A DNA stretch of 64,000 nucleotides. Source: Synechococcus sp. BIOS-E4-1. GTDB lineage: Bacteria; Cyanobacteriota; Cyanobacteriia; PCC-6307; Cyanobiaceae. The notes below the pieces were generated by a model. The model did not search any database, was not told where the DNA came from, and saw only the letters and a program-made list of their open reading frames with translations. Positions 18,839 through 61,322 of the stretch are shown one piece after another (positions within the stretch are counted from its first letter, which is position 1; each line of letters starts with the position of its first letter). The position numbers and the translations under genes are program-made. The stretch spans positions 1,695,494 to 1,759,493 of the forward strand of contig NZ_CP047935.1 of the NCBI RefSeq assembly GCF_014279995.1. The letters are read 5' to 3'.

Positions 18839-20227
18839 GTGGGATCAGCACGGTTCATCGTCCTTGCATTGCGTCTTGGCCTGTATCAGGCCTGTCTCGG
18901 TGCTCTCTCAGTTCTCACCCTTGGCATCTTCAACAGACTGCTGATCGATGAATTTGAAGTCCCAGCCGCGCTTACCGCACTGGCTCTCGGCAGCCAGCAA
19001 CTGGTTGCCTTCTCCAGAATCTGGTTTGGACAGCAATCGGATCGCTGCCGCTGGAATCAACTGCGGCGGACACCCTTCATTGTTGGCGGCGCAGCGGCGT
19101 TCTGCACATTGACGTGGATTGCAGGGCGCAGCGTTCTCTGGCTGGCGGAAGCATCCCAAACAGGCAGTCAGGCTGATGTGATCTGGAGAGGTCTGATCCT
19201 CGCGCTGGTGTTTGTGTTCTACGGACTGGCCATTGCAGCCAGTTCCACACCATTTGCAGCACTGCTGGTTGATGTGAGCACGGACAAACAGCGACCTGCC
19301 CTGGTCTCCATTGTGTGGTCGATGCTGATGGTTGGAATCGTCGCTGGAGCGATTCTGCTCAGTTCATTTCTTGGCTCCTCTTGCGATACAGCTGAGCTGG
19401 GCAATCTGATCTCAGGAGTGGAAAGGCTGATCACGGTGGCCCCCCTTGTGATCTTCACGCTTGTCGTGGCATCGATCGCAGGGGTGGAACCACGTCTGAA
19501 ACCAGGCAATTCCAACAATCAGTCACGACTCGCAACCAATCAGGAAATTTCTCTCAAAGGCGCATGGACGGTGCTGAAGCAATCGCCTCAGGTGGGGTAT
19601 TTCTTTGGTGTTCTGTCTCTGTTCACCTTCGCGTTATTTCTTCAGGAGGCAGTCCTGGAGCCCTATGGAGGCGCGGTGTTCGCCATGGACCTCTGCACGA
19701 GCACGCGGCTGAATGCCGTGTGGGGAATTGGAACATTGCTGGGTATTGCGGCAACAGGGTTTGTGATCACACCACGCCTTGGCGCCCAACGGACAGCTTT
19801 GACAGGTGGCGTGCTCTCAGCCCTTTTCGTGCTGATGATGGTTTTCGCAGGATCTCTGGCTTCAACATCGCTGTTCCGAACGGCACTGTTTCTTTTTGGC
19901 GTTGGAGCAGGAATCAGCACCAATGCAAGCCTGACACTGATGCTTGGCTTGACATCGCCGCTGATGGCAGGGACGTTCATCGGGGTCTGGGGATTGGCGC
20001 AGGCCTACGCACGAGGGCTCGCCACGATCAGCGGCGGAGCCTTGCTGAGCGTCTTCGGCGAAATCACAGGATCTCAGAACACCTTTGGGGCCTACGCCGG
20101 GGTGTTTGTCGTCCAGGCCTTCGCTCTACTGGCAGCAGGCCTGCTGCTTCTGCGCGTGGACACAAAGCTGTTTCAATCGAAGGTCGAGAAGGCTCTCAGC
20201 TCAGTGCTGGCATGTGAGCTTGACTGA
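18839..20227 (+). CDS. PucC/BCD-family MFS transporter
   Basis: A 462-residue polytopic membrane protein (about 12 helices) of the bacteriochlorophyll-delivery (BCD/PucC) branch of the major facilitator superfamily. Visible are the N-terminal LRLGLYQACLGALSVLTLGIFNR stretch, the GxxSDR-like FGQQSDRCRW loop after helix 2 and RRTPFIVGG. Cyanobacterial members are thought to help insert chlorophyll into antenna or photosystem proteins. Starts with GTG at 18839. Confidence 0.88.
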   Translation: MGSARFIVLALRLGLYQACLGALSVLTLGIFNRLLIDEFEVPAALTALALGSQQLVAFSRIWFGQQSDRCRWNQLRRTPFIVGGAAAFCTLTWIAGRSVLWLAEASQTGSQADVIWRGLILALVFVFYGLAIAASSTPFAALLVDVSTDKQRPALVSIVWSMLMVGIVAGAILLSSFLGSSCDTAELGNLISGVERLITVAPLVIFTLVVASIAGVEPRLKPGNSNNQSRLATNQEISLKGAWTVLKQSPQVGYFFGVLSLFTFALFLQEAVLEPYGGAVFAMDLCTSTRLNAVWGIGTLLGIAATGFVITPRLGAQRTALTGGVLSALFVLMMVFAGSLASTSLFRTALFLFGVGAGISTNASLTLMLGLTSPLMAGTFIGVWGLAQAYARGLATISGGALLSVFGEITGSQNTFGAYAGVFVVQAFALLAAGLLLLRVDTKLFQSKVEKALSSVLACELD

Positions 20228-29982: not shown

Positions 29983-30210
29983 ATCTCCGAGGAACAACTC
30001 AAAGCTTTGATCGAAAAGGTCAAAGGCGACACCAGTCTGCAGGAGAAGATCAAAGTAGCAGGTGATGTTGACGCAGCTCTTGCAATTGCGAAAGAGGCTG
30101 GGTTTATGATTTCTGCTGATGACGTTCGGTCGTCAGTTTCAGATGATGAGCTGGAAGGCGGGGCTGGAGGTGGGTATTTGAGTTTTGAAAATCACAGACT
30201 AGTCGGCTGA
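29983..30210 (+). CDS. prochlorosin-type precursor 1, ATC in place of ATG
   Basis: A Nif11-type leader peptide of 75 residues if read from the ATC at 29983 (then SEEQLKALIEKVKGDTSLQE, AIAKEAGFMISADD, DDELEGGAGG). The ATC aligns with the ATG of the other array genes, 27 nt after the conserved -10-like hexamer; the first standard start is a TTG at 30007, which would remove eight leader residues. The core GYLSFENHRLVG has no Cys, so no lanthionine can form. Probably a degenerating member, or a peptide used for something else. Confidence 0.6.
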   Translation: MSEEQLKALIEKVKGDTSLQEKIKVAGDVDAALAIAKEAGFMISADDVRSSVSDDELEGGAGGGYLSFENHRLVG

Positions 30211-30324
30211 GTATTTCGGGCCAATGTGAATAAGTGATGCTCCGTATCTGATGCATATCATGTTCAATTCTTAAACAATTACAGGTAGATAATTGCTTAA
30301 GGTTTTTTGCATCTGCAGTTCTAT

Positions 30325-30594
30325 TCACAATTCACAGTTCAAATCCAAAAGCATAAATACTCTTGTTAAACGTTCTCCTGCTAAGGGTTTATTATTTTCG
30401 TAGTCCCTAGATAGCTTTTTCAGCATATTATTATATAATTCTTTGGCAATACGTTTCTCTGTTACCCCTTCATTTCCGAGTTAACAGATACTGTCTGCTA
30501 CAGCAGCTGTCCTTTGACTTTGTATCTCCACTTCACTGCAAGCAGTTGCTGGGCCCGCAATGAAGAGACTAAGAAGATGGAATAACTTTTTCAT
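30325..30594 (-). pseudogene. secreted protein gene with one in-frame TAA
   Basis: Read from ATG 30594 it gives a signal peptide (MKKLFHLLSLFIAGPATA), then CSEVEIQSQRTAAVADSIC, an in-frame TAA (30481-30483), and continues in the same frame for 52 residues (LGNEGVTEKRIAKELYNNML and later AGERLTRVFMLLDLNCEL) to TGA. The body is otherwise intact and protein-like, so a single nonsense change explains the loss. The plan resembles the secreted protein at 29255-29524. Confidence 0.65.
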
Positions 30595-30629
30595 AAGAGT
30601 ATCTTATCCTGCATTCTTGGTTTCAGCCA

Positions 30630-31079
30630 TTAATAATCTTTTTTGTAGCGAAAGTGTTTGACAACCTTTGGATTAGACTTTACTAACTCTCCATTACCCA
30701 TTATTCCTTTCTGCCTTATCTCCTCTGTGTAACCAATATACTCCTTTTTATCCTCGTCTGGACTGCATTCTGCAAATAGCATTAACTTACCTTTGTCTTC
30801 TTTATCCCTTTTAGCTTCTAGCTCCTTTACTTCTTTTTCAAAGTCTTTTATTTACAAACCATCTCTTAGCTCAGCAGCAACTATAACTTTACCATCTTTT
30901 CTTGCTTTAAAATATTTTTCTTCAAGAGCATAATACTTGTCGTTGATTTCTTTTGCCTGGGGTTTAAACAACCTAGCAGTCTCAGCCCATTTATAATAAG
31001 CTTCATTAGCTTCTTGCTTGGTTTTATATTTGCATCCAACCAAAACAAGTATTAGCAGAAGCGATGCTAAGCGACTCAT
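30630..31079 (-). pseudogene. lipoprotein gene with one in-frame TAA
   Basis: Starting at ATG 31079 the reading gives a lipoprotein signal SRLASLLLILVLVGC, a charged helical body (KWAETARLFKPQAKEINDKY), then a TAA at 30852-30854 after AAELRDGL. The frame continues without further breaks (IKDFEKEVKELEAKRDKEDK, FAECSPDEDKK, VVKHFRYKKDY) to a TAA at 30630. It is homologous to the intact lipoprotein at 21398-21823, which has the same KHFRY end. The open part alone (30852-31094) is likely a truncated product. Confidence 0.7.
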
Positions 31080-31094
31080 AACTATGTCATCCAA

Positions 31095-31416
31095 TAAATC
31101 ATATTTTAGGATAACAGAAAAAGTCGGCGCGGCTATATCTAATTAACACATCAAACTTAAACATTTTAAACGGGTCATATATCTCCCTCAGGGATAAATA
31201 GTGTGACGAGATTGGGCCATTGATGCAAATAACATAAACGAAAAATTACGACATTATTTCCATAGGATATGGAAGCTAATTAGATTAGTCCTAATACCTT
31301 CTGATGAACCTCTAAAGAAGACTCTGAAACGTCTTAAGCATCTATTAGGTATGCATTGAGCTCTAGGCATTTGATGTCTTTTGGATCCGTTAACAGTACA
31401 TTTTAAAGGGTTTCGA
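31095..31416. other. no gene seen
   Basis: Spacer between the two broken minus-strand genes and the tandem array; low-complexity AT-rich sequence only. Confidence 0.45.
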
Positions 31417-31443
31417 TATTATAGAAAATCTAAAACATGCCTA
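31417..31443 (+). promoter_or_regulatory. array-type upstream module of precursor 2
   Basis: TATTAT at 31417-31422 starts 27 nt before the ATA that replaces the start codon. The module is more diverged than the others. Confidence 0.4.
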
Positions 31444-31692
31444 ATATCAGAAGAACAACTCAAGGCGTTTCTAGAAAAGGTCATAGCAGAAACCAGCCTT
31501 CAGGAAAAGCTCAAAGCAGCTGCTGATTCAGACGCAGCTCTTGCGATTGCGAAAGAGGCGAGATTTATGATTTCTGCTGATGGCTTGAAGAACGATCAAT
31601 CAGAACTTTCAGATGAGGAACTGGAAGGAGCGGCTGGGAGCGGATGTTGCGCATGCCGGCCGGGAAGCGACACCAGCCTTCATACAATTTAG
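31444..31692 (+). CDS. prochlorosin-type precursor 2, ATA in place of ATG
   Basis: An 82-residue precursor if read from ATA 31444 (then SEEQLKAFLEKVIAETSLQE, KLKAAADSDAALAIAKEA, LSDEELEGAAGS). No ATG/GTG/TTG lies close in frame; the next upstream one is a TTG at 31381, which would add 21 residues. The cleavage motif is GS instead of GG. The core GCCACRPGSDTSLHTI has three Cys and four Ser/Thr, all Cys before the Ser/Thr, so rings would close in the reverse direction to most prochlorosins. A strong terminator follows. Confidence 0.65.
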   Translation: MSEEQLKAFLEKVIAETSLQEKLKAAADSDAALAIAKEARFMISADGLKNDQSELSDEELEGAAGSGCCACRPGSDTSLHTI

Positions 31693-31728
31693 AAGTGAAA
31701 GCCTCGAGCGATGTGAGCCTACTCATCA

Positions 31729-31755
31729 AAGCCCCTACAACTGCAGGGGCTTTTT
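31729..31755 (+). terminator. terminator of precursor 2
   Basis: AGCCCCT and AGGGGCT arms around a short loop, preceded by AAA and followed by five T. It separates precursor 2 from precursor 3, supporting single-gene transcription. Confidence 0.85.
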
Positions 31756-31855
31756 ATTTCTTCAATCACCCCAAACAGCCCACAAATCAGCCTTCAATAC
31801 CTGGCATGATTGAGCGCAGTAATTGTTCACCAAAGACTTTGCTGCAGAGCGTTGC

Positions 31856-31882
31856 TATAACTACTCAACAGACCTGATACCA
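31856..31882 (+). promoter_or_regulatory. array-type upstream module of precursor 3
   Basis: TTGC-TATAAC, an extended -10-like element 27 nt before the start. About 46 bp further upstream is the shared TTGAGCGCAGTAA block at 31810. Confidence 0.55.
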
Positions 31883-32152
31883 TTGTCAGAAGAACAACTT
31901 AAAGCGTTCCTAGCAAAAGCGAAGGACGACCAGACAATTCAGGAAAAACTAAAAGCAGCTAAGTCACCTGAAGATGTTGTGGGCATCGCTAAAGAGCACG
32001 GACATGAATTTACTGCTGATAAGATCAACCAGCTCAGTGGTGATGAGCTGGAAGGCGTATCTGGGGGCATATTTTCTAACGGGGGGAACACCTGCACTGA
32101 AAGATACTGGGGGCATACTCCTCCGAAAAACTGTCAAGGGGCTCAATTATGA
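31883..32152 (+). CDS. prochlorosin-type precursor 3 (TTG start)
   Basis: An 89-residue precursor from TTG 31883, which aligns with the ATG of sister genes (leader SEEQLKAFLAKAKDDQTIQE). The middle belongs to a second leader subtype (KSPEDVVGIAKEHGHEFTAD, as in precursor 9). It ends DELEGVSGG, then a 27-residue core with Cys at core positions 9 and 22, Thr at 8, 10 and 17 and Ser at 3, enough for two lanthionine rings. Processing would need a LanM enzyme and a C39 transporter, neither in the window. Confidence 0.82.
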   Translation: MSEEQLKAFLAKAKDDQTIQEKLKAAKSPEDVVGIAKEHGHEFTADKINQLSGDELEGVSGGIFSNGGNTCTERYWGHTPPKNCQGAQL

Positions 32153-32242
32153 GCATCAGCTTCAAGTAGGGCTTGCTGTCCATAACTTTTTCCCCTCGGC
32201 TTCAAAACTTACACACTCAAAGCCTCTGCAGCAGACCGTTGC

Positions 32243-32269
32243 TATGACTGCTGAAAAGACCTGCTACTC
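32243..32269 (+). promoter_or_regulatory. array-type upstream module of precursor 4
   Basis: CGTTGC-TATGAC with the hexamer starting 27 nt before the ATG, preceded by the shared CTGCAGCAGACCG sequence. Confidence 0.55.
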
Positions 32270-32524
32270 ATGTCAGAAGAGCAACTCAAAGCCTTTCTCG
32301 AAAAAGTCAAAGCTGACACCAGTCTTCAGGAGAAGCTCAAAGCTGCAGCCGATTCCGATGCAGTCGTAGCAATTGCCAAAGACCAGGGTTATCAATTTAC
32401 TGCTGATAAGGTCAGCCAAGTCAGCGAATGGGAGTTAGAGAGCGCGGCTGGCGGGGAGTCTTCCTTCGTAGGTGCTTGTACTGGCTGTGAATGTATGGAC
32501 TCAAACGTGTGCTTTAGTATCTGA
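32270..32524 (+). CDS. prochlorosin-type precursor 4
   Basis: An 84-residue precursor, ATG start. The leader is MSEEQLKAFLEKVKADTSLQ.., AVVAIAKDQGYQFTADKV, WELESAAGG. The 22-residue core has Cys at positions 8, 11, 13 and 19, Ser at 2, 3, 16 and 21 and Thr at 9, so up to four thioether rings are possible. The leader matches the Nif11-type leaders that ProcM-like lanthipeptide synthetases recognise. Confidence 0.88.
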   Translation: MSEEQLKAFLEKVKADTSLQEKLKAAADSDAVVAIAKDQGYQFTADKVSQVSEWELESAAGGESSFVGACTGCECMDSNVCFSI

Positions 32525-32732
32525 ATCGTGCGAAATAGAATCACGCCCATGAACGATTCTTTATTGGACTAACTAATTAACTTATGGCCGATGCTCCTCA
32601 TCAATAAGATATTGCATCAGTAGATTTTTCTATTGACTCACTCACCCCAAAGAAGCCCACAAATTACCCGCCAATACCTGGCACACTTGAGCGCATTAAT
32701 TGTTAGTTAGAAACACTTCAAGATGTCGTTGC

Positions 32733-32759
32733 TATAACCATTTAAGACTCCTGATAGCC
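32733..32759 (+). promoter_or_regulatory. array-type upstream module of precursor 5
   Basis: CGTTGC-TATAAC, hexamer 27 nt before the ATG, with a TTGAGCGCATTAA block further upstream. Confidence 0.55.
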
Positions 32760-33011
32760 ATGACACAAGAACAACTCAACGCTTTCTTGGCTTGCGCCAA
32801 AAGCAACACCAAGCTTCAGGATATGCTCAAAGCTGCAGCCGATTCCGATGCAGTGGTAGCGATTGCCAAAGAAGCAGGATTTAGCATTTCTGCGGATGAG
32901 CTTAATAAGGCCTCAGAGCTTTCTGAAGAGGAGCTAGAGGGCGTTAGTGGTGGTTACTTTTACGCTTTTACTGACCGACAAGCTGGACCGGACAATCCCA
33001 GCCCCTGCTGA
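32760..33011 (+). CDS. prochlorosin-type precursor 5
   Basis: An 83-residue precursor from ATG 32760 (the frame is open to 32700). The leader MTQEQLNAFLACAKSNTKLQ is diverged at its start and carries an unusual Cys at residue 12; the end is SEEELEGVSGG. The core YFYAFTDRQAGPDNPSPC has one terminal Cys, Thr at 6 and Ser at 16, so only one ring is possible, either a large 6-18 ring or a tiny 16-18 ring. Confidence 0.85.
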   Translation: MTQEQLNAFLACAKSNTKLQDMLKAAADSDAVVAIAKEAGFSISADELNKASELSEEELEGVSGGYFYAFTDRQAGPDNPSPC

Positions 33012-33067
33012 GGAGTTTTTCAATAGCCTGACTATTCCCATAAAGCAGCCTCAAATAATTGGCATGA

Positions 33068-33140
33068 TTGAGCGCAGTAAGCATTAACCAAAGTTGCTGC
33101 AGCAGACCGTTGCTATAGCTACTTAACAGACCTGATACCC
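33068..33140 (+). promoter_or_regulatory. array-type upstream module of precursor 6 (best full example)
   Basis: The full conserved module reads TTGAGCGCAGTAA at 33068, AACCAAAG, GCTGCAGCAGACCG, then TTGC-TATAGC with the hexamer at 33114, 27 nt before the ATG, and CAGACCTGATACCC directly before the start. The same order occurs before precursors 3, 5, 7, 8 and the broken gene at 35278. An extended -10 (TTGCTATAxC) is the likely promoter; no good -35 is seen. Confidence 0.6.
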
Positions 33141-33389
33141 ATGTCAGAAGAGCAACTCAAGTCATTCCTGGAAAAAGTCAAAGGCGAAGCCAGCCTTCAG
33201 GAGAAGCTCAAAGCAGCTACTAATTCTGATACAGTTCGTTTGATTGCAAAAGAGGCTGGTTTTAGTATTTCTGCTGATGACCTAAACCAGGCTCAACTAA
33301 CGCTTTCTGAAGAAGAGCTAGAAGGGGCGGCTGGTGGGAAAAAACCAAAGCTTGAATATTCGAACACATCTCTTGCATGTGGTTGTTGA
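33141..33389 (+). CDS. prochlorosin-type precursor 6
   Basis: An 82-residue precursor. Leader MSEEQLKSFLEKVKGEASLQ.., LIAKEAGFSISADDLNQA, SEEELEGAAGG. The core KKPKLEYSNTSLACGC is basic at its start and has Ser 8, Thr 10, Ser 11 and Cys 14 and 16, so two overlapping or nested rings near the C-terminus are expected. A weak AGCTT..AAGCT hairpin with a seven-T run (33402-33430) follows. Confidence 0.88.
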   Translation: MSEEQLKSFLEKVKGEASLQEKLKAATNSDTVRLIAKEAGFSISADDLNQAQLTLSEEELEGAAGGKKPKLEYSNTSLACGC

Positions 33390-33546
33390 TATTCCTGAAA
33401 GCAGAAGCTTGCGACCTCAAAGCTCTTTTTTTGAAAGAAGCTGTTTATTTCTCAAATCATACCAATAATCCCATAAATCAGCCTCCAACACTAGGCACGA
33501 TTGAGCACAGTATTTGTTAGTCAGAGACAGTGCGGCAGACCATTGC

Positions 33547-33573
33547 TATGACTGCTGCAAAAACCTGCCACTC
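33547..33573 (+). promoter_or_regulatory. array-type upstream module of precursor 7
   Basis: CATTGC-TATGAC, hexamer 27 nt before the ATG; TTGAGCACAGTA block at 33501. Confidence 0.55.
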
Positions 33574-33846
33574 ATGTCAGAAGAGCAACTCAAAGCCTTC
33601 CTCGAAAAGGTCAAAGGCGACACCAGTCTTCAAGAAAAGCTCAAAGCAGCTGCTGATTCTGATGCTGTTCTTACGGTTGCCAAAGAACATGGATTTAGTA
33701 TCTCTGCAGATGACCTCAACAAAACTCAATCAGAGATTTCTGAAGAGGAGCTAGAAGACTCGGCTGGTTGTAGGAGGTGTGACAGCTGCGGGATATGGGG
33801 GTGGATTGGCATGGCTAAAACATGCAGAGGTCCAACACAGGGATGA
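33574..33846 (+). CDS. prochlorosin-type precursor 7, GC cleavage junction
   Basis: A 90-residue precursor from ATG 33574 (frame open to 33514). The leader MSEEQLKAFLEKVKGDTSLQ is near consensus, but the junction is ELEDSAG-C, so the usual second Gly is replaced by Cys. Counting from that Cys, the 25-residue core has Cys at 1, 4, 7 and 19, Ser 6, Thr 18 and 23, and an aromatic GIWGWIG centre. Loss of the GG motif may change or block cleavage by a C39 peptidase. Confidence 0.85.
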   Translation: MSEEQLKAFLEKVKGDTSLQEKLKAAADSDAVLTVAKEHGFSISADDLNKTQSEISEEELEDSAGCRRCDSCGIWGWIGMAKTCRGPTQG

Positions 33847-34026
33847 AGTTGCTATCTAGTAATGAAATGGACAATACTGTTTCCGTGCTCTACTCATCAA
33901 AAGCTCCTGCCACCACAGGCGTTTCTTATTGCTTCAATAGCCTAGCTAATCCCATAAATTAGCCTTCAATACCTGGGCAATTGAGCGCGGTAAGTATTAG
34001 CTAAAGACACCGCAGCAGACCGTTGC

Positions 34027-34053
34027 TATATTTGCTCAAAAGATCTCATACTC
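34027..34053 (+). promoter_or_regulatory. array-type upstream module of precursor 8
   Basis: CGTTGC-TATATT, hexamer 27 nt before the ATG; TTGAGCGCGGTAAG block at 33981. Confidence 0.55.
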
Positions 34054-34326
34054 ATGTCAGAAGATCAACTCAAAGCTTTCCTGGAAAAGGTTAAAAGAGA
34101 CACCAGTCTTCGAAATAAGCTTAAGGCAGCAACTAGTTTTGATGAGGCAATTGCTTTAGCTAAAGATACCGGATTTTCTCTTTCAGTAGAAGACGTTCAG
34201 TCATCGATGACGGACGTTGAATTGGAAGCCATTGCTGGGGGAGGAGCAAGGACCGGTACTGGACTGTCCTACTGCTGTTCGATCGATGAGTGTCCAAAGA
34301 CCGCAGGAGGCAATTGCCCACGCTGA
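34054..34326 (+). CDS. prochlorosin-type precursor 8
   Basis: A 90-residue precursor. The leader (MSEDQLKAFLEKVKRDTSLR, SFDEAIALAKDTGFSLSV, DVELEAIAGG) is the most diverged of the ATG-started members. The 27-residue core has Cys at 11, 12, 17 and 25, Thr at 4, 6 and 20, and Ser at 9 and 13: a Thr-Gly-Thr-Gly start, a Cys-Cys-Ser centre and up to four rings. Confidence 0.87.
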   Translation: MSEDQLKAFLEKVKRDTSLRNKLKAATSFDEAIALAKDTGFSLSVEDVQSSMTDVELEAIAGGGARTGTGLSYCCSIDECPKTAGGNCPR

Positions 34327-34460
34327 AAGGTACCTCACATATCGATATTGATTGTATCTTTGATTGTGAAGCTTCAAAAAGAGCGTATGTTTTGGTCGAA
34401 GAGTGATTGAATCTGCACAATTAAGGCTCGTTGCTGTTTTTTTAAAGACTTCCAATACCC

Positions 34461-34691
34461 ATGCCCCTAGAACAACTCAAAGCCTTCCTTGAAAAAGTCA
34501 AAGGTGATTCCAATCTTCAGGAGAAACTAAAAGCAGCGAAGTCACCTGAAGATGTTGTAGCTATTGCTAAAGAGAATGGCCATGAATTCAATTCAGATCA
34601 CCTCAGCCAGCTCAGTAAAGAGGAGCTAGAGAGTGTGGCTGGTGGCGTGACACTAAAATACAAGAATTGGTGTTACTGTACCGCACTATAA
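34461..34691 (+). CDS. prochlorosin-type precursor 9
   Basis: A 76-residue precursor. The leader MPLEQLKAFLEKVKGDSNLQ has a Pro at position 2; the middle is the KSPEDVVAIAKENGHEF subtype shared with precursor 3; the end is EELESVAGG. The short core VTLKYKNWCYCTAL has Thr 2 and 12 and Cys 9 and 11. Its upstream module is degenerate (TTGC-TGTTTT, 26 nt from the ATG), so expression may be lower. Confidence 0.87.
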   Translation: MPLEQLKAFLEKVKGDSNLQEKLKAAKSPEDVVAIAKENGHEFNSDHLSQLSKEELESVAGGVTLKYKNWCYCTAL

Positions 34692-34905
34692 ACTGGGTAG
34701 TTGAATACGTCGTTGCTTATTGTTCTGTGGATTAATATAGAACAGCCTCCACACTGAAGTCTAGGCATTGACAAAGGGTTCATTGCTTCAATTACACCCA
34801 AAAGCCGATTGATCTCCCTGCAATACTTAGCACGAATCAGCGCAGTAAGTATTATTCAAAGACTTTTGAGCAGAAAGTTGCTATGAATGCTTTGTCTCGA
34901 TACCT

Positions 34906-35175
34906 ATCTCCCTAGAACATCTCAAGGCAATCCTGGAGAAGGTCAAGACAGACATCAGCCTTCAGGAGAAGCTCAAGTCTGAGCGTGTTGATGTTGTAGC
35001 TATTACTAAGGCTGCCGGGTTTTCTATCAAACCTGACGACATAATTGCACTTCGAGAAAACACTTCTGAAAAAGAGCTAGAGGCTATCCTTGGTGGTGCC
35101 GGATCTTGCAATCCTCAGGGCGGTGCGGATCCATTCTGCACTTGGGATTTCCCCAATTTCATAAATCACAAATGA
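34906..35175 (+). CDS. prochlorosin-type precursor 10, ATC in place of ATG
   Basis: An 89-residue precursor if read from ATC 34906 (then SLEHLKAILEKVKTDISLQE, VVAITKAAGFSIKPDD, EKELEAILGG). No ATG, GTG or TTG occurs in this frame close by, which is why automatic ORF finding misses it. The frame is intact through a 25-residue core with Cys 4 and 14, Ser 3 and Thr 15. A TTGC-TATGAA module lies 24 nt upstream. Either silent or started at a near-cognate codon. Confidence 0.6.
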   Translation: MSLEHLKAILEKVKTDISLQEKLKSERVDVVAITKAAGFSIKPDDIIALRENTSEKELEAILGGAGSCNPQGGADPFCTWDFPNFINHK

Positions 35176-35250
35176 CACAAAGCAAACTTGAATGCACGGC
35201 AAGATTGAGCAAAGTAAGTATTCGCCAAAGACACTGCAGCACATCTTTGC

Positions 35251-35277
35251 TAAAAATACTGAACAGACTTCATACAC
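35251..35277 (+). promoter_or_regulatory. array-type upstream module of the broken precursor 11
   Basis: TTTGC-TAAAAA, hexamer 27 nt before the ATG; TTGAGCAAAGTAAG block upstream at 35205. Confidence 0.45.
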
Positions 35278-35408
35278 ATGTCAGCAGAGCAAATCAAAGC
35301 GTTCCTGAAGAAGATCAAAGGCGACACCAAACTTCAAGAGAAGCTGAAAGCTGCTCAAATAAGGGCAATTACGCCGCTGACACGTGCTGTAGCTGGAATT
35401 GTGGCTGA
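35278..35408 (+). pseudogene. prochlorosin-type precursor 11, leader deletion and frameshift
   Basis: The first 26 residues (MSAEQIKAFLKKIKGDTKLQ.., KLKAAQ) are a normal leader start. The rest of the leader, including the GG site, is missing, and a Cys-rich core-like sequence NYAADTCCSWNCG followed by TGA (35406-35408) appears in another frame. A deletion of about 100 bp that also shifted the frame explains this. The open frame continuing to 35577 is out-of-frame and antisense to the next gene. Confidence 0.65.
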
Positions 35409-35449: not shown

Positions 35450-35725
35450 TCACAAGAGTTCGAGCCAATTGTACTGAGTTCCTGCAGCCGCAGGCGTCCC
35501 TTTACCACAACCGTCATTCTTGCCACCGGCAACAGCTTCCAATTCCTCCTCGGAAAGTTCTGACATTCTTGATTTGAATGCCGTAGTTAGATCCTCTACA
35601 CTGATTTGAATACCATGATCTGCGGCAAGCTTTACAGCCTCTTCAGCGGTAGTGGCGGAGGTAATAGACTGTTTAAATTCAGAATTCGTCGCGATAAGAT
35701 TCAAAAGATCTTCCTGAACTGACAT
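35450..35725 (-). CDS. Nif11-leader peptide, minus-strand subfamily, copy 1
   Basis: A 91-residue precursor of a second Nif11 subfamily: MSVQEDLLNLIATNSEFKQS, ATTAEEAVKLAADHGIQI, LSEEELEAVAGG, then a 23-residue core starting KNDGC and ending WLELL with a single Cys at core position 5. The paralogue at 57486 has the same core length and Cys position, so here, unlike the tandem array, the core is conserved. Placed convergently at the end of the array. Function unknown; could be a non-lanthionine RiPP. Confidence 0.8.
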   Translation of the reverse strand: MSVQEDLLNLIATNSEFKQSITSATTAEEAVKLAADHGIQISVEDLTTAFKSRMSELSEEELEAVAGGKNDGCGKGTPAAAGTQYNWLELL

Positions 35726-36055
35726 GACTACATTAAAAACATATCTAACTTATAGCATTAAAATTGAAGCGGAGCTTCAAATTGCTACATCTTTTAATCA
35801 TTAGCCTGCCGTCCAAATCAACCGAACGACGACATAAAAGCTGATTGACTCTAAGAGCAATTTTTTAGATTCTAGCAATAGTGGGTTTCTTGAATAATCA
35901 GAGCCGATCGCTTGTTTGTAAGCCTTCTCTTGATTTTTTAGTTACCAATGGGCAGCAGGGTTTGGTCATCCTGCTGTCTCTACCACATAGACCACACATA
36001 CATAATCAGAAGATTACTGTTCTGATTGATTTGAACGAACATTTATTTATTGAAT
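35726..36055. other. no supported gene
   Basis: Spacer between the peptide array and the phage-like block. The GTG-started frame at 35881-36063 (+) is unconvincing. Confidence 0.45.
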
Positions 36056-36745
36056 ATGACTGATAGTTTTAACAGGGGTGCAACAGTTACTCCTGATATT
36101 GGATATGACCCAGCAACTGGTGAAGAGTACATCGATTATGACAATGCTGATATTGCCTGGGCTGGTCACAGAGATGCTGTCCTTACTGAATTTGACCGCC
36201 ACCAAGACGAGTTGCTAAGTATCAACGAATTTAACGGAGAGCTAGAACATGAGTTCGAAAACACGCACAGTGAGGACTTTCTTAGAGGAAGCGAGTTACC
36301 TCCCCAAGACATTGATCAGCTCAAATCTATTGTCGGTGATTCTGAGCAATACGGAGCTCTTACACAATGGGCAGCTAACAATGTCCATCCAGAGTTCGTC
36401 GAACAGTTTAACAACATTATGCTGTCAAACGACTATCCACAGATGGAGGAGGCTATCCAAGTCCTGTACAACCTCTACTTAGAGAACTGGACAGCAGAAG
36501 ATGCATATGACAGTGAAGAGTACCAGGAACAGGACTTTGACCAGGAACAAGCTGATATTGAGTACAACACTTCAGTCATGGAACATTTCTCTGAAGAGGG
36601 TTATCAAGAGATGGTGTCTTGGGCTAGTGAGAATTTATCTCCTGCTGATATTGCTGCTTACGATCGCGCAATGGATTCACCAGATCATGACTATAAAACT
36701 CAAATGATCCAATGGCTTGAAGAAACCTATAACAACGCTAACTGA
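36056..36745 (+). CDS. acidic protein, phage-like, unknown
   Basis: A 229-residue, very acidic protein from ATG 36056 (MTDSFNRGATVTPDIGYDPA). Repeated Glu/Asp/Tyr-rich helices (EDAYDSEEYQEQDFDQEQAD) and a duplicated motif, LTQWAANNVHPEFVEQFNNI and MVSWASENLSPADIAAYDRA, show an internal repeat. The acidic, helical composition recalls phage scaffolding or capsid-assembly proteins, but no homology is claimed. First gene of a run with 0-14 bp gaps or overlaps. Confidence 0.65.
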   Translation: MTDSFNRGATVTPDIGYDPATGEEYIDYDNADIAWAGHRDAVLTEFDRHQDELLSINEFNGELEHEFENTHSEDFLRGSELPPQDIDQLKSIVGDSEQYGALTQWAANNVHPEFVEQFNNIMLSNDYPQMEEAIQVLYNLYLENWTAEDAYDSEEYQEQDFDQEQADIEYNTSVMEHFSEEGYQEMVSWASENLSPADIAAYDRAMDSPDHDYKTQMIQWLEETYNNAN

Positions 36746-36750
36746 AACTA

Positions 36751-37116
36751 ATGATTAAAAACACGAAAATGGAACTTGATTTGAACAATCCTGCTGTTGT
36801 TGAGAAGCTACTTAATGCTGATGTTGTCGGCGGCTTTCCAAAAAAGGAGGCACAACAGATAGAAGAGAAAATTAAAGCAAAACAAAAGCTTGCTTCATTC
36901 ACGATGAAACTTGCTCAAAGTAATATTGAAGCACTTAAACGACAAGCTGCTTCAAAAGGTCTGGAATGGAAGATCTACCTGCAAAAGGAAATTGAATCAA
37001 AGATCCTTAAAGGCAAGATCGGAGCACCCACTATCCAGACACCCTCTATTGGTGCTGAACCCTTGGACAAAATTAAAGGCCCCAGTCCTACTTCACGCAT
37101 CCGAAGGATTGGCTAA
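36751..37116 (+). CDS. basic helical protein, unknown
   Basis: A 121-residue Lys-rich protein with long helices (EAQQIEEKIKAKQKLASFTM, RQAASKGLEWKIYLQKEIES) and a Pro/Ile-rich basic tail. Starts 6 bp after the previous stop, and its TAA overlaps the next ATG by one base. Likely co-translated with the acidic protein; the opposite charges could allow a complex (inference). Confidence 0.6.
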   Translation: MIKNTKMELDLNNPAVVEKLLNADVVGGFPKKEAQQIEEKIKAKQKLASFTMKLAQSNIEALKRQAASKGLEWKIYLQKEIESKILKGKIGAPTIQTPSIGAEPLDKIKGPSPTSRIRRIG

Positions 37117-37460
37117 TGGAAGAGGAAGAACTTATCTTATGTTGTCCTCACTGCAACAGTGAGCTTGGTATTGATGAAGCAGGAGACCTGTTTATTATTG
37201 AGTTACCTGAATTAGAAGCTAATGAATCAAGAGGTATTAGTGGTCTTAAGGTCCAGCATTCTGGCGCTACTCCACGTGACCTAGCACTCTTCAACCAACA
37301 GCAAAACAAGATTAGAGAATCACTAACAGATGTACCTTTCCTCGGTAATGATCCAAGGATGCTGTCAAAAGAAGCTGCTGCTGCTGATCAAGCAATTACA
37401 GATGCCAACAACAAAGACATAAAGAAACGAGCTATCACACCAACTAAGAAAGCAAAATGA
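37116..37460 (+). CDS. small zinc-ribbon-like protein
   Basis: A 114-residue protein starting MEEEELILCCPHCNSELGID, with a single CCPHC knuckle as in half of a zinc ribbon, followed by an acidic strand region and a helical Gln/Asn-rich middle (LALFNQQQNKIRESL). TAATG overlap upstream, ATGA overlap downstream. Such small ribbon proteins are frequent in phage-derived operons; function unknown. Confidence 0.6.
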   Translation: MEEEELILCCPHCNSELGIDEAGDLFIIELPELEANESRGISGLKVQHSGATPRDLALFNQQQNKIRESLTDVPFLGNDPRMLSKEAAAADQAITDANNKDIKKRAITPTKKAK

Positions 37461-37843
37461 TTAAACCAATGAATTTCACCAAAGAAAAACCTAAGGGTAA
37501 ATTAGATATCCTTTGCTCAGCCCGTGTAAGACTTCGGGATGATCAGCGTAAGCTCCTGAAGGATGCTTATAACACGATTAGGAACACCAATACACCTGAA
37601 CCTCTAGCTGCCATTGGTGGTTCAACAGTCAAGACAAGTACTGCTTATCAAATTAATTCGCATCTAGCTCTTTCTGATATCACTATTCGTGATTTGATTA
37701 ATACTAGGGAGAGCATTCAAATCGTTACTGTCCTTTCTCTTCAAGCTGCACTAGGAGTTGAGGCACTTACCAAGGAAGAGGTGATGAAAGCTTTTCAAGG
37801 GTACTGTGATTACATTTTTTTGATTGGCAATGACGGGCAATGA
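37457..37843 (+). CDS. hypothetical protein in phage-like block
   Basis: A 128-residue mixed helical protein (KLDILCSARVRLRDDQRKLL, ALGVEALTKEEVMKAFQGYC). It overlaps both neighbours. The repeated use of overlapping starts and stops argues that every frame of this run is translated. No family recognised. Confidence 0.6.
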   Translation: MIKPMNFTKEKPKGKLDILCSARVRLRDDQRKLLKDAYNTIRNTNTPEPLAAIGGSTVKTSTAYQINSHLALSDITIRDLINTRESIQIVTVLSLQAALGVEALTKEEVMKAFQGYCDYIFLIGNDGQ

Positions 37844-38171
37844 TTACGGCGGGTTTGTTGAACGGACACCACTTTCTGAAAGGCTGTCTGTTGAACCTGG
37901 AACAAAGAAAGCTAAAACTGCCATTCAACGTCCAAGACGGGAAGGTATTAAAGGTGGTCTGACTGCGCTCCAGGTGAATTATCAGAAGCCTGTTAAGCGC
38001 AAACGTAAGGGACAACCTGACAACCTGACTGAGGGTTATGAGGAAGGATCTGAAGGTTATGAAACTTGGCTTGAAGAACACGAGCAGCCAGGTATTGAAG
38101 GTCTAACAGGTGAAGAGAAACACTTCCTTTCCATGCTCAATAACGACGAACTAACAGACAATTTCTTTTAG
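37830..38171 (+). CDS. hypothetical protein in phage-like block
   Basis: A 113-residue protein from ATG 37830 (a TTG at 37824 is possible), overlapping the previous gene by 14 bp. Basic N-terminal half (KKAKTAIQRPRREGIKGG, KRKRKGQPDN), acidic C-terminal half (ETWLEEHEQPGIEG, EEKHFLSMLNNDE). Such two-charge plans occur in nucleic-acid-binding or assembly factors; function unknown. Confidence 0.55.
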   Translation: MTGNDYGGFVERTPLSERLSVEPGTKKAKTAIQRPRREGIKGGLTALQVNYQKPVKRKRKGQPDNLTEGYEEGSEGYETWLEEHEQPGIEGLTGEEKHFLSMLNNDELTDNFF

Positions 38172-39367: not shown

Positions 39368-39622
39368 GTGGGTGGTTTTGTGGGTGGTTTGCTGTTTTGG
39401 ACTTCGCTGAAAACCCTTGCTGTAATTGGGGTGGACCGCCCGACCGTGCAAGCCTCCGGCTTCGACCTGGAGTTACCAGAAGGGGCGACAAAGCGAGGAT
39501 TCGTTTCCGGCTACAAGGCCGGTCTACGGCACCTTCACGACAGTCACCCCAAGTCGAAAGAGAGTCAGATCAGAGCACTAGAGAAAGGCTGTCACCAACC
39601 AGGCAGTCCAACATCAATTTAA
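39368..39622 (+). CDS. hypothetical frame at the island edge
   Basis: An 84-residue frame starting with GTG (VGGFVGGLLFWTSLK.., then GFDLELPEGATKRGFVSGYK). It runs into the 3' end of purK on the other strand (9-bp overlap). Composition is protein-like but no family is recognised; it could be the stump of a longer gene that lay at the island boundary. Confidence 0.35.
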   Translation: MGGFVGGLLFWTSLKTLAVIGVDRPTVQASGFDLELPEGATKRGFVSGYKAGLRHLHDSHPKSKESQIRALEKGCHQPGSPTSI

Positions 39623-40786
39623 GGGATTCGGCCAGACCGCACGTATTTGCTTCAGAAGGCTTTGAGCTTCCTCGCCCCGAGCCTCGGAATCGGCTTGTTC
39701 AAGCAGCACTGTCACATGACCAACCTTCCTTCCAGGCATTTCCTCCTTCCCATACCAATGCAGGTGGCACCTGGGGATGGCCTCCAGAGCAGAAAGCCTT
39801 GACTTCAGCGGTTCGCTGCCCTCAGAAGACAGACCAAGAAGATTCACCATGAGAGCGCCTGGCACCACAAGATCCGATGCCGGCACTGGCAACTCTCCTG
39901 TAATGCAGAGCTGCTGATCGAACTGACTGCTGCTGCACGCCTCAATGGAGAAATGACCGGAGTTGTGTGTGCGTGGGGCGATCTCATTCACCATCAGACC
40001 TGCTGGACCATAAAAGAACTCAAGCGCCATCACTCCCACGTAGTTGAGGCTTGTGAGCAGTGAAGCAGCAATGTTGTATGCGGTGGCTTCCAACAATTGC
40101 TCCGACTCTGCAGGAGCGAGAACCCAGTCACAAACCTGATTCTTCTGATGGGTTTCCACCAGTGGCAGGCTACGGATTCGTCCCTGCTGGTCACGACTGA
40201 CCACCAGCGCCAGTTCACGTTCATAAGTGACCCAGGCTTCCAGCAACCAATCCTCAACTGAAACTCTGCTCAACAGTTCCTGAAGAGACTTGAGATCTGC
40301 GAGCACGCAGGTTCCCTTGCCGTCGTAACCGCCATGGGCTGCTTTCGCCATGACCGGAAACGTCCAGCCAGAGGGCAGAGTCGGTGAGTCGGTGTTGATC
40401 TCATCCAGTGCTATCCAAGCCGGACTTGGAATCGCCAGATCATCCAGCATTCGGCGTTGAGACAGCTTGTTCACCAACGGCAGCAGACTGTCAAGAGAAG
40501 GGGAAAACAGCACTCCATCTCGGTCCAGTACCCGCAGGGCTTCAACGGGTATCCACTCATTTTCAAACGTGATGTGTTGGCAGCGCTTCAGCAATTCAGC
40601 AGTTGCAGCAGCATCTGTCGCTGCACCCAGGACTTGCCCCTGAGCGACAGACATCGCCGGATCCTGGCCGGATGCGCTTTGCACGATCACATCAATATTG
40701 CGCGACTGTGCTGCTTGACACAGCATCAGTGCGAGCTGCCCACCCCCAACAACGCCAATTGTTCCGGCAGCGCTAGCCATGGCCAC
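39614..40786 (-). CDS. purK: 5-(carboxyamino)imidazole ribonucleotide synthase
   Basis: A 390-residue ATP-grasp enzyme of purine synthesis that makes N5-CAIR from AIR, bicarbonate and ATP. Visible are the nucleotide-binding GVVGGGQLALMLCQAA near the N-terminus, AKAAHGGYDGKG in the ATP-grasp domain, and NEIAPRTHNSGHFSIEAC at the metal/ATP site. Its 3' end borders the accessory island, so purK marks the return to core genome. Confidence 0.96.
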   Translation of the reverse strand: MAMASAAGTIGVVGGGQLALMLCQAAQSRNIDVIVQSASGQDPAMSVAQGQVLGAATDAAATAELLKRCQHITFENEWIPVEALRVLDRDGVLFSPSLDSLLPLVNKLSQRRMLDDLAIPSPAWIALDEINTDSPTLPSGWTFPVMAKAAHGGYDGKGTCVLADLKSLQELLSRVSVEDWLLEAWVTYERELALVVSRDQQGRIRSLPLVETHQKNQVCDWVLAPAESEQLLEATAYNIAASLLTSLNYVGVMALEFFYGPAGLMVNEIAPRTHNSGHFSIEACSSSQFDQQLCITGELPVPASDLVVPGALMVNLLGLSSEGSEPLKSRLSALEAIPRCHLHWYGKEEMPGRKVGHVTVLLEQADSEARGEEAQSLLKQIRAVWPNPLN

Positions 40787-48001: not shown

Positions 48002-48934
48002 ATGAGCTCTGACACCGCACTCGTCGCGGCGATCAACCAGCTCCGCCAGGAACGCAATGCCGTGATCCTGGCGCACTATTACCAGGAGCCCGAAATTCAG
48101 GACATCGCCGATTTCATCGGTGACTCGCTTGAGCTGTCGAGGAAAGCTGCCAATACTGATGCTGACGTGATCGTGTTCTGCGGCGTCCACTTCATGGCGG
48201 AAACCGCCAAGATCCTCAGCCCTGAAAAAACAGTGGTGCTCCCCGATATCGATGCGGGCTGCTCACTGGCTGACGACTGTCCAGCCGATGAATTCGCCAG
48301 CTTTCGCGAGCGCCATCCGGATCATCTGGTGGTGAGCTACATCAACTGCACCGCGGCCGTGAAGGCCCAGAGCGATCTGATCTGCACCAGCAGCAACGCC
48401 GTGGATCTGGTGAAGCAGCTGCCCGAACAACAACCGGTGCTCTTTGCCCCTGACCGCAATCTCGGACGTTGGGTGGAGCGCCAGAGCGGACGCGAACTCA
48501 CGCTCTGGCCCGGACGCTGTTTCGTGCATGAAACCTTCAGTGAGGAAGCCCTGCTCAAACTCAAACTGGAACATCCGGATGCAGAGGTGATCGCCCATCC
48601 GGAATGTCAGGAAAACCTCCTGGATCTTGCCGATTTCATCGGATCCACAAGCAAACTTCTGGTTCACTCTGAAACCAGTGACTCCAACACATTTATTGTT
48701 CTCACAGAACCCGGGATCCTGCATCAGATGAAGCAGCGGGTCCCAGAGAAGACGTTATTGGATGTCCCCGGCCTCGATGGCTGCAGCTGCAATGCCTGTC
48801 CCTACATGCGCATGAACAGCCTCGAAAAACTGCGCGACTGTCTTGAGAAACTCTCGCCGCAGATCACCATGGAGGAATCGATTCGTTCCAAAGCGGAAGC
48901 ACCGATCAGACGCATGCTCGCAATGAGCAAGTGA
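48002..48934 (+). CDS. nadA: quinolinate synthase
   Basis: A 310-residue 4Fe-4S enzyme that condenses iminoaspartate with dihydroxyacetone phosphate in NAD synthesis. Visible are [13 protein letters not shown] and [14 protein letters not shown] in the first domain, and the cluster cysteines in [19 protein letters not shown].. and [22 protein letters not shown] and HSETSDS are also present. This copy is complete. Its bases from 48156 to beyond the stop are repeated exactly 2600 bp downstream. Confidence 0.96.
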
Positions 48935-48947
48935 CGCTCTCAGGCGC
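48156..48947 (+). repeat. 792-bp direct repeat, copy 1 (3' part of nadA)
   Basis: Identical, as far as I can compare by eye, to 50756-51547 at a constant offset of 2600 bp. It starts inside nadA codon 52 and ends 13 bp after the nadA stop. The bases on either side differ at once. Confidence 0.93.
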
Positions 48948-50755: not shown

Positions 50756-51534
50756 CTGATGCTGACGTGATCGTGTTCTGCGGCGTCCACTTCATGGCGG
50801 AAACCGCCAAGATCCTCAGCCCTGAAAAAACAGTGGTGCTCCCCGATATCGATGCGGGCTGCTCACTGGCTGACGACTGTCCAGCCGATGAATTCGCCAG
50901 CTTTCGCGAGCGCCATCCGGATCATCTGGTGGTGAGCTACATCAACTGCACCGCGGCCGTGAAGGCCCAGAGCGATCTGATCTGCACCAGCAGCAACGCC
51001 GTGGATCTGGTGAAGCAGCTGCCCGAACAACAACCGGTGCTCTTTGCCCCTGACCGCAATCTCGGACGTTGGGTGGAGCGCCAGAGCGGACGCGAACTCA
51101 CGCTCTGGCCCGGACGCTGTTTCGTGCATGAAACCTTCAGTGAGGAAGCCCTGCTCAAACTCAAACTGGAACATCCGGATGCAGAGGTGATCGCCCATCC
51201 GGAATGTCAGGAAAACCTCCTGGATCTTGCCGATTTCATCGGATCCACAAGCAAACTTCTGGTTCACTCTGAAACCAGTGACTCCAACACATTTATTGTT
51301 CTCACAGAACCCGGGATCCTGCATCAGATGAAGCAGCGGGTCCCAGAGAAGACGTTATTGGATGTCCCCGGCCTCGATGGCTGCAGCTGCAATGCCTGTC
51401 CCTACATGCGCATGAACAGCCTCGAAAAACTGCGCGACTGTCTTGAGAAACTCTCGCCGCAGATCACCATGGAGGAATCGATTCGTTCCAAAGCGGAAGC
51501 ACCGATCAGACGCATGCTCGCAATGAGCAAGTGA
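50752..51534 (+). pseudogene. nadA: truncated nadA copy lacking the first 51 codons
   Basis: Codons 52-310 of nadA followed by its stop, fused upstream to the AT-rich insert; a chance TTG at 50752 gives MADADVIVF. It lacks the HYYQEPEIQ and GDSLELSRK segments of the first domain and so should be inactive as quinolinate synthase, though the frame is open. Perfect identity to the full gene indicates a recent event or ongoing gene conversion. Confidence 0.85.
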
Positions 51535-51547
51535 CGCTCTCAGGCGC
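50756..51547 (+). repeat. 792-bp direct repeat, copy 2
   Basis: Second copy of 48156-48947, same orientation. The following base pairs lead directly into the exonuclease gene, so this copy probably keeps the original downstream context of nadA. Confidence 0.93.
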
Positions 51548-61019: not shown

Positions 61020-61322
61020 ATGACTCAAGGACAACTCGAAACCTTCCTAAAAAAGGTCAAAGCTGACACCAGCCTTCAGGAGAAGCTCAAGAAAGCTGCT
61101 GATGCTGATGCAGTAGTAGCAATAGCTAAAAACGTGGGTTTAACTATTTTTGCTGATGACTTGAAGAAAGGCCAGTCAGAACTTGCAAATGAAGAACTAG
61201 AAAAGGTGGCTGGTGGAGAACAGTGCCCCCTGAATACTGGGTGCCCGCTACATACTGGCTGGTGGTGCACTGGAGTACTGGTTGATCAACGACCACATCG
61301 TTCTGGCGCTAGTGATGCATAA
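61020..61322 (+). CDS. prochlorosin-type precursor 12
   Basis: A 100-residue precursor, 26 kb from the array. Leader MTQGQLETFLKKVKADTSLQ, VVAIAKNVGLTIFADDLK, NEELEKVAGG. The 34-residue core starts EQCPLNTGCPLHTGWWCTG, a repeat-like Cys-Pro-Leu-x-Thr-Gly pattern with Cys at 3, 9 and 17 and Thr at 7, 13 and 18, then a basic tail ending SGASDA. It lacks the array's TTGCTATAAC module, so its regulation differs. Confidence 0.85.
   Translation: MTQGQLETFLKKVKADTSLQEKLKKAADADAVVAIAKNVGLTIFADDLKKGQSELANEELEKVAGGEQCPLNTGCPLHTGWWCTGVLVDQRPHRSGASDA

What the first reader, a model, noticed from the sequence alone, without database searches (positions are those of the whole stretch)
29983..35408. Tandem array of prochlorosin-type precursors with unrelated cores
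Ten precursor genes plus one broken copy lie on the plus strand. From precursor 2 on, the ancestral start positions (31444, 31883, 32270, 32760, 33141, 33574, 34054, 34461, 34906, 35278) are spaced 372-490 bp. Leaders are near-identical (SEEQLKAFLEKVK.., ELEGxAGG) while cores differ completely in length and Cys number (0 to 4). This is the signature of ProcM-type combinatorial lanthipeptide biosynthesis in picocyanobacteria (established). These particular cores may be undescribed. No synthetase or transporter is in the window, so modification must occur in trans.
Basis: partly seen in the sequence, partly recalled or inferred. Interest (0 to 1): 0.88.

Follow-up and report, generated by a model that had tools for sequence, protein, structure and literature searches.

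The report
Partly decayed prochlorosin gene array, Synechococcus
This is a row of genes for ring-shaped peptides called prochlorosins, a known kind and partly decayed, but the genome around it carries about 168 such leader frames, roughly twice the highest gene count I found in print.

Summary
Ten full-length Nif11/ProcA-type leader frames plus one truncated copy lie on the plus strand at the stated positions, spaced 372-490 bp, with 0-4 Cys per core. Two corrections: the leaders are 41-73% identical, not near-identical, and only six of ten units keep a usable start codon and a GG end.

The genome has two LanM synthetases, both far from the array. One stands in an operon with two ABC proteins (one with a C39 peptidase domain) and an outer-membrane efflux protein; relatives share it.

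Beyond the finding: the 3.31 Mb genome holds 168 full-length leader frames in the 15% I examined. The highest published counts I read are 83 and 79. Between strains, similar cores (85-100% DNA identity) are often joined to unrelated upstream DNA: 10 of 12 tested pairs show a sharp change of identity, 4 of them inside the leader. I infer recombination in the shared promoter-leader block that re-pairs cores with front ends. The array is a new member of a known kind; scale and shuffling are the interesting parts.

The parts
29983..30210 (+). Unit 1: leader + core GYLSFENHRLVG (0 Cys); start position reads ATC; probably a pseudogene
31444..31692 (+). Unit 2: start position ATA (TTG upstream in frame at 31381), leader ends AGS, core GCCACRPGSDTSLHTI (3 Cys); probably decayed
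31883..32152 (+). Unit 3: TTG start, GG, core IFSNGGNTCTERYWGHTPPKNCQGAQL (2 Cys); intact by sequence
32270..32524 (+). Unit 4: ATG, GG, core ESSFVGACTGCECMDSNVCFSI (4 Cys); intact by sequence
32760..33011 (+). Unit 5: ATG, GG, core YFYAFTDRQAGPDNPSPC (1 Cys); intact by sequence
33141..33389 (+). Unit 6: ATG, GG, core KKPKLEYSNTSLACGC (2 Cys); intact by sequence
33574..33846 (+). Unit 7: ATG but leader ends AGC, core RRCDSCGIWGWIGMAKTCRGPTQG (3 Cys); cleavage site doubtful
34054..34326 (+). Unit 8: ATG, GG, core GARTGTGLSYCCSIDECPKTAGGNCPR (4 Cys); intact by sequence
34461..34691 (+). Unit 9: ATG, GG, core VTLKYKNWCYCTAL (2 Cys); intact by sequence, but neither conserved arm was found upstream of it
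34906..35175 (+). Unit 10: start position ATC with a stop upstream in frame, GG, core AGSCNPQGGADPFCTWDFPNFINHK (2 Cys); core paralogue at C1:1346257
35278..35408 (+). Unit 11: truncated copy; first ~26 leader residues in frame from ATG, then leader similarity ends
31724..31797 (+). Conserved arm after unit 2 (terminator-like hairpin 31728-31753 plus spacer); matches to this arm also begin at 32997, 33416, 33900 and 34753
   Evidence: of three places folded only this hairpin beat its shuffles
31798..31882 (+). Conserved -85..-1 arm before unit 3 (read as promoter/5' region); matches also begin at 32216, 32675, 33057, 33491, 33977, 34824 and 35198 (units 4, 5, 6, 7, 8, 10, 11)
61020..61322 (+). 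One more complete prochlorosin-type precursor of the window, outside the array; core EQCPLNTGCPLHTGWWCTGVLVDQRPHRSGASDA (3 Cys)
35450..35725 (-). Nif11 precursor of a different type (MSVQEDLL..., ELEAVAGG, core KNDGCGKGTPAAAGTQYNWLELL), just past the array on the other strand

Best explanation
The array is a lineage-specific run of prochlorosin (ProcA/SyncA) precursor genes in a marine Synechococcus-type cyanobacterium. A typical unit has a conserved 85-bp block before the start, a Nif11-type leader of about 62-66 residues ending in GG, a core of its own, and a terminator-like block after the stop. Mechanism, step by step. (a) Intact units are transcribed and translated one by one (inferred from the block anatomy). 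(b) The leader is bound by a LanM encoded elsewhere, most likely the one at C1:2203084, whose orthologues accompany these precursors in relatives (inferred from synteny and motif). (c) That enzyme dehydrates Ser/Thr and closes thioether rings with Cys (established for ProcM and SyncM; not shown here). (d) The C39/ABC export system in the same operon cleaves at GG and exports the peptide (inferred). (e) The repertoire changes by duplication, by recombination in the promoter-leader block that re-pairs cores with other front ends, and by decay; this array is visibly decaying (decay: seen in the sequence; recombination: inferred). The confidence below is for (a)-(d) and the assignment; I give the recombination in (e) about 0.6.
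For: Leader family match for all ten units. Two LanM proteins and an export operon in the genome, outside the window. LanM at C1:2203084 is 87.6% and 88.9% identical to those of G011 and G016 and 68% to that of G004 over 938 residues, with the same neighbours (a Maf-like gene and psbD/psbC, read by eye). LanM in 5 of 14 relatives tested, those with >=16 precursors. The array lies in a 19.4 kb interval of GC 0.429 (flanks 0.549 and 0.557) between a PucC/MFS-family gene and purK (Pfam); the interval is about 0.8 kb in G006, G009 and G010, and no precursor was found in the intervals of the four relatives read for it, G001, G004, G006 and G011. Decay: 3 of 10 units here lack a start codon against 5 of 153 in the rest of the set, Fisher p = 0.008, a test chosen after seeing the data. 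Recombination.
Against: No peptide, transcript or enzyme activity was observed. Four of ten units look impaired. A second, divergent LanM exists (42-48% identical to the others), so which enzyme serves the array is not proven. The conserved upstream arm was found for 118 of 163 units and the downstream arm for 114, so the unit anatomy is common, not universal. Sigma-70-like sites in the array are no more frequent than in shuffled sequence (8 found, 8.8 expected) and terminator-like sites only slightly (8 found, 5.0 expected, sd 2.3), so the promoter reading rests on conservation. For recombination: some pairs share both front block and leader (e.g. 1344965/1794193, upstream 0.94, leader 0.96), as plain duplication would give; the two halves of the upstream block correlate only at r = 0.24, so short segments are noisy; and 18 of the near-identical leaders form one group, so those pairs are not independent.
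Confidence: 0.9

Rival explanations
1. The array is a graveyard: pseudogenes left from earlier duplications, no longer contributing peptides.
For: Three units without a start codon at its place, two without GG, one truncated copy; low-GC interval; start-codon loss is enriched here (chosen after seeing the data).
Against: Six units keep start, GG, Cys and Ser/Thr with cores of 14-27 residues.
Confidence: 0.15
2. The second LanM (C1:496472-499792, beside psaA/psaB) rather than the exporter-linked one modifies these peptides.
For: It is a 1106-aa LanM with both domains and the same motif.
Against: It has its own, different Nif11-type precursor directly upstream (L033 11677-11408) and I saw no exporter genes in the 17 kb around it (ORFs read by eye; an RND-type pump gene lies near). 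The five LanM-bearing relatives have one LanM each, of the other kind, and still have 16-37 ProcA-type precursors.
Confidence: 0.07
3. The precursors are substrates of another RiPP enzyme, e.g. the YcaO proteins of the genome, and not lanthipeptides.
For: Two YcaO genes exist and four ProcA-type units lie 2-5 kb from one of them. Nif11 leaders serve several RiPP classes (recalled).
Against: Neither YcaO lies in the window; precursors of this type co-occur with LanM across the relatives tested.
Confidence: 0.04
4. The mosaic of upstream blocks, leaders and cores reflects selection and convergence in conserved promoter and leader sequence, not recombination.
For: Both blocks are conserved family-wide; short segments give noisy identities; my permutation test ignores that coding DNA is naturally better conserved than non-coding DNA.
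Against: Eight of the ten closest leader pairs (DNA 0.95-0.97, four-fold sites 0.86-0.96) have unrelated cores. Three pairs with upstream blocks 96-98% identical have leaders of 60-77%. In four cross-strain pairs identity jumps inside the leader from 0.55-0.68 to 0.95-1.00, reached by none of 500 permutations.
Confidence: 0.3

Closest known systems
Prochlorosins of Prochlorococcus MIT9313 (ProcA/ProcM)
   Same: Nif11-type leader ending in D/EELExxxGG, unrelated cores, scattered precursors, a LanM with the Cys-Cys-Gly motif (features as described in PMC10783134)
   Different: 29 ProcA substrates are given for MIT9313 in PMC10783134 (passage); here 168 full-length leader frames, and a second LanM with its own precursor
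Synechococsins of Synechococcus MIT9509 and UW179A (SyncA/SyncM)
   Same: Tandem arrays plus singletons, same leader type; 83 and 79 putative precursors are the highest counts in PMC10783134
   Different: About twice as many leader frames here. Whether that survey counted this genome is unknown to me; its main text names BIOS-E4-1 once, for a YcaO cluster, and its tables could not be read
Synechococcus sp. UW105 (G012; contig length 378,165 equals NZ_UCNN01000030.1)
   Same: The interval between purK and the PucC/MFS gene, which holds the array here, holds prochlorosin genes there too
   Different: There: a LanM, an export operon and two precursors; here: the precursor array and no enzyme

Membership tests
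Prochlorosin/synechococsin precursors (ProcA/SyncA) | Nif11-type leader (TIGR03798 / PF07862) | tested here: met
   10 of 10 full-length units over the NCBIfam cut-off; PF07862 in both units scanned with Pfam
Prochlorosin/synechococsin precursors (ProcA/SyncA) | Leader ends in D/EELExxxGG | tested here: met
   8 of 10 units end GG; 31444 ends GS, 33574 GC; the letter before ELE varies (e.g. WELE in 32270, VELE in 34054, KELE in 34906)
Prochlorosin/synechococsin precursors (ProcA/SyncA) | Core with Cys and Ser/Thr, unrelated between paralogues | tested here: met
   9 of 10 cores have Cys, 10 of 10 have Ser/Thr; core protein identity 0.04-0.26 within the array
Prochlorosin/synechococsin precursors (ProcA/SyncA) | ProcM-like class II LanM in the genome | tested here: met
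   Two LanM with DUF4135 + LANC_like and CCG
Prochlorosin/synechococsin precursors (ProcA/SyncA) | Modified by that LanM to lanthionine rings | not testable with these tools
   Needs expression and mass spectrometry
Prochlorosin/synechococsin precursors (ProcA/SyncA) | Cleaved at GG and exported by a C39-ABC system | not testable with these tools
   Genes present beside LanM; activity not tested
ProcM-type promiscuous LanM (second copy at C1:496472-499792) | Serves many scattered ProcA precursors | tested here: inconclusive
   Own precursor upstream; 42-48% identical to the six others compared; substrate range unknown

The most novel reading that the evidence does not exclude
The conserved promoter-leader block is the working seam of a genome-wide shuffling system. 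Homologous recombination between more than 160 scattered copies keeps joining existing cores to other front ends, so that the cell carries and re-wires a library of cyclic peptides. That would add a recombination route to the indel-based core change that I recall from the 2017 PNAS study (not held, not read here).
Probability: 0.5. Interest if true: 0.65.

Novelty: new member of a known kind. Interest (0 to 1): 0.5.

Why it matters
How prochlorosin cores become so different while the leader stays alike is an open question, and so is the use of the peptides. A genome with about 168 leader frames, two LanM enzymes and many near-identical leaders with unrelated cores gives enough paralogue pairs to test recombination against substitution and indels. 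The cores of the six intact units had no DNA relative among the other units of this genome examined or the 97 units of three relatives.

Tried and rejected
Frameshifted reuse of one core as another: of 12 core-DNA pairs among 13,203 in the genome (0-1 pairs in each of 20 codon-shuffled controls), one had a frame offset of 1, and its two members share the same C-terminal peptide, so an indel explains it. Not a general route.

Tandem unequal crossing-over as the main source of shared tracts: of 71 pairs within this genome that share a high-scoring tract from the upstream block into the leader, 60 are more than 100 kb apart, 6 less than 10 kb, and 28 lie on opposite strands. So exchange between distant loci fits better than tandem exchange alone. 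The segment scan has no shuffled control of its own, and its many shared downstream tracts are inflated because in arrays the downstream stretch runs into the next unit's upstream block.

Phage carriage: no relative confirmed for A1 in viral contigs (227 stretches matched a pattern, none by tblastn) and none for unit 6 in the phages collection.

Naming the strain: the first genome-contig scan gave no relative; the second gave 23 loci but may leave out the window's own genome. A 3.31 Mb genome fits Synechococcus BIOS-E4-1 (size recalled): of 54 Parasynechococcus-like genomes the largest has 3.31 Mb and BIOS-E4-1 has the most microsatellites, a number that tracks size (PMC9024877, passages); BIOS-E4-1 has 4,426 genes, 31.2% unique (PMC7522525, passages). 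Suggestive, not proof. PMC9124967 passages gave no size.

Literature: searches 'prochlorosin'+'Synechococcus' (22 papers), prochlorosin/recombination/leader/core peptide (116 papers, 25 listed), lanthipeptide+picocyanobacteria+Synechococcus since 2023 (6 papers), prochlorosin/evolution/indel (swamped by unrelated papers). No listed title or abstract start described recombination located in the leader. PMC10783134, of which I saw the outline, Results part 1 of 3, section 8, the Discussion and passages, does suggest recombination-related proteins and horizontal transfer as a source of diversity. PMC11251773, PMC9872173 and PMC11559063 were seen as passages. The 2017 PNAS paper is not held and is cited from recall. 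Supplementary tables could not be read.

Rows dropped: 20 of 183 hits of >=50 bits that do not reach from model position 1-3 to >=60. Of the 25 cross-genome core pairs, 12 went into the test; 13 did not: two whose upstream stretch is cut by a contig end (G016 L140:2695), four that match over only part of a core, and seven with core identity of about 76-85%. One tested pair (1263822/L116:6256) also has only 85% because of a repeat indel. Some units occur in two tested pairs. An earlier count gave 158 canonical starts; the right number is 155.


Full report
What was checked. Ten units run through to a core and all ten pass the NCBIfam cut-off for Nif11-like leader RiPP precursors. The eleventh (35278) keeps about 26 leader residues, then similarity to the leader ends. 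Spacing and Cys counts are as stated. Leaders are 41-73% identical to each other (median 55%), cores 4-26%. Three units have ATC/ATA at the start position, one starts with TTG, two do not end in GG. Six of ten are intact by sequence.

Enzymes. Neither LanM nor C39 hits lie in the window. The genome (one contig, 3,314,220 bp; window = C1:1695494-1759493) has two LanM proteins. The one at C1:2203084 is 1127 aa. On the same strand stand an ABC protein, an ABC protein with a Peptidase_C39 domain, a 465-aa ORF that looks like HlyD by eye (no Pfam match at 1e-5) and an OEP-family protein, in that order counting away from LanM, so upstream of it in transcription. psbD/psbC (named by eye) are close by. 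Orthologues 87.6% and 88.9% identical have the same neighbours in G011 and G016, and one of 68% in G004. The other LanM, C1:496472-499792, 1106 aa, stands near psaA/psaB (named by eye) with no exporter genes that I recognised. It has its own, different Nif11-type precursor directly upstream, L033 11677-11408, and is 42-48% identical to the six others compared. The named loci were not compared with it.

Scale. A profile of the ten units found 150 matches in the genome, the scoring limit of that search, out of 302 candidates. A leader profile over the fetched stretches gives 163 full-length frames in 38 clusters: 155 start with ATG, GTG or TTG, 145 end in GG, 150 have such a start and end GG/AG/GA/GS, and 142 of those also have Cys and Ser/Thr. 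Six further stretches added five full-length frames, all five with Met and GG in the printed translation: 168 in about 15% of the genome. The rest of the genome was searched only by the capped profile and by patterns. As whole-genome counts, a degenerate EQLKAF pattern with one mismatch has 184 matches (reversed control 3) and an EELExx[A/S]GG pattern 162 (control 0). In 29 relatives searched the highest counts were 37, 34, 28, 20 and 16, five more had 1-2, and 19 had none. The highest published counts I read are 83 and 79 (PMC10783134). Mine are leader frames, theirs curated precursors, so the ratio is approximate.

Place. The array lies between a PucC/MFS-family gene (18839-20227) and purK (39614-40786) (Pfam). 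From the interval is 19.4 kb here, 7.9 kb in G011, 5.4 in G001, 5.6 in G004, about 0.8 in G006, G009 and G010, and 16.5 kb in G012. In four more relatives (G007, G013, G014, G017) the gene nearest purK is only 38-39% identical to the PucC gene, and G018 has no match. The intervals read in G001, G004, G006 and G011 gave no leader match of 15 bits or more. So this is a variable site that holds prochlorosin genes in at least two lineages.

Anatomy of a unit. Aligning 163 upstream regions shows a conserved block of about 160 bp before the ATG. Profiles of its two halves suggest that the half next to the ATG belongs to the following gene, while the other half, with a terminator-like hairpin, belongs to the preceding gene. 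Counting as neighbour a full-length unit on the same strand within 700 bp, of 56 units with no neighbour after them 33 have the second half downstream, whereas of 56 with no neighbour before them 12 have it upstream. Overall 118 of 163 units have the front arm and 114 of 163 the downstream arm; in the array, units 1, 2 and 9 lack the front arm. The hairpin at 31728-31753 folds at -13.7 kcal/mol, z -2.84; two other places I folded were no better than their shuffles.

How cores and front ends combine, within the genome. Of the ten closest leader pairs two are plain duplicates with related cores; eight have leader DNA 0.95-0.97 identical, four-fold sites 0.86-0.96, and unrelated cores. These eight come from one group of 18 similar leaders, so they are not independent. 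In 30 pairs with leader identity 0.90-0.98 core DNA identity is 0.47 (shuffled 0.46) and the front arm 0.64 (23 pairs with both arms), no more than for distant pairs (0.63-0.67); the downstream arm is a little higher, 0.77 in 13 pairs against about 0.70. Along 64 pairs with leader 0.88-0.985 the 90 bp before the start are 0.67-0.75 identical, slightly above distant pairs (0.63-0.69), and then jump to 0.97 at the start codon. The reverse also occurs: three pairs with front blocks 96-98% identical have leaders of 60-77%. Some pairs share both (1344965/1794193). Pairwise identities of 118 units correlate within the leader (r 0.38-0.71) and weakly across the start codon (0.03-0.18); but the two halves of the front block also correlate only at 0.24, so part of the drop is noise.

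Between genomes. 25 core pairs were found between 163 units here and 97 in G004, G011 and G016, or among those three. Twelve of them, core identity 85-100%, were tested for a change of identity along upstream, leader and core. Ten show one that none of 500 permutations reaches: four inside the leader (nt 37, 64, 82, 103), one at the start codon, five upstream. Two show none and look like plain orthologues. I read this as homologous recombination in the shared front end; gene conversion would look the same. The permutations keep overall identity but not the natural rise of conservation from non-coding to coding DNA, so the change at the start codon and those upstream are weaker evidence than the four in the leader, where identity goes from 0.55-0.68 to 0.95-1.00.

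Other modes. The pair 1526433/2492233 looks like a true segmental duplicate, with leader 0.96 and cores at 80%, so cores also change fast by substitution. 1263822 and its G011 counterpart differ by a Pro-Gly repeat indel in the core.

Verdict. The array is a prochlorosin array of the known kind, partly decayed, modified in trans if at all. The number of precursors in this genome and the evidence for re-pairing of cores and front ends are what a specialist would look at.

Noticed in passing
window 48156-48947 and 50756-51547: 792 bp of nadA (PF02445) is present twice at 100% identity, with a 448-aa ORF of no Pfam, PADLOC or PHROG match between; a very recent duplication with insertion or an assembly artefact.
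   Followed up: partly
window 36050-38171 +: Five small ORFs in a row right after the array; the first matches PHROG head assembly/scaffolding families (E 2.6e-16), yet it had no match in the phage records or viral contigs.
   Followed up: partly
L033 7473-11677 (C1:496472-500676): A second, divergent LanM near psaA/psaB with its own Nif11-type precursor directly upstream and what looks like a degenerate second one between them.
   Followed up: partly
L175 (C1:1312956-1315719), near YcaO at C1:1317729: Four ProcA-type units stand 2-5 kb from a YcaO gene; a second YcaO is at C1:1547638.
   Followed up: no
window 35450-35725 - and 57486-57863 -: Two precursors of another Nif11 type with similar leaders (MS.QEDLL...); more of this type occur near other arrays, e.g. 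C1:1264905 and C1:1347848.
   Followed up: no
L074 (G012, Synechococcus sp. UW105): A LanM and export operon lie in the interval between purK and the PucC/MFS gene, the site that holds this array in the present genome.
   Followed up: partly
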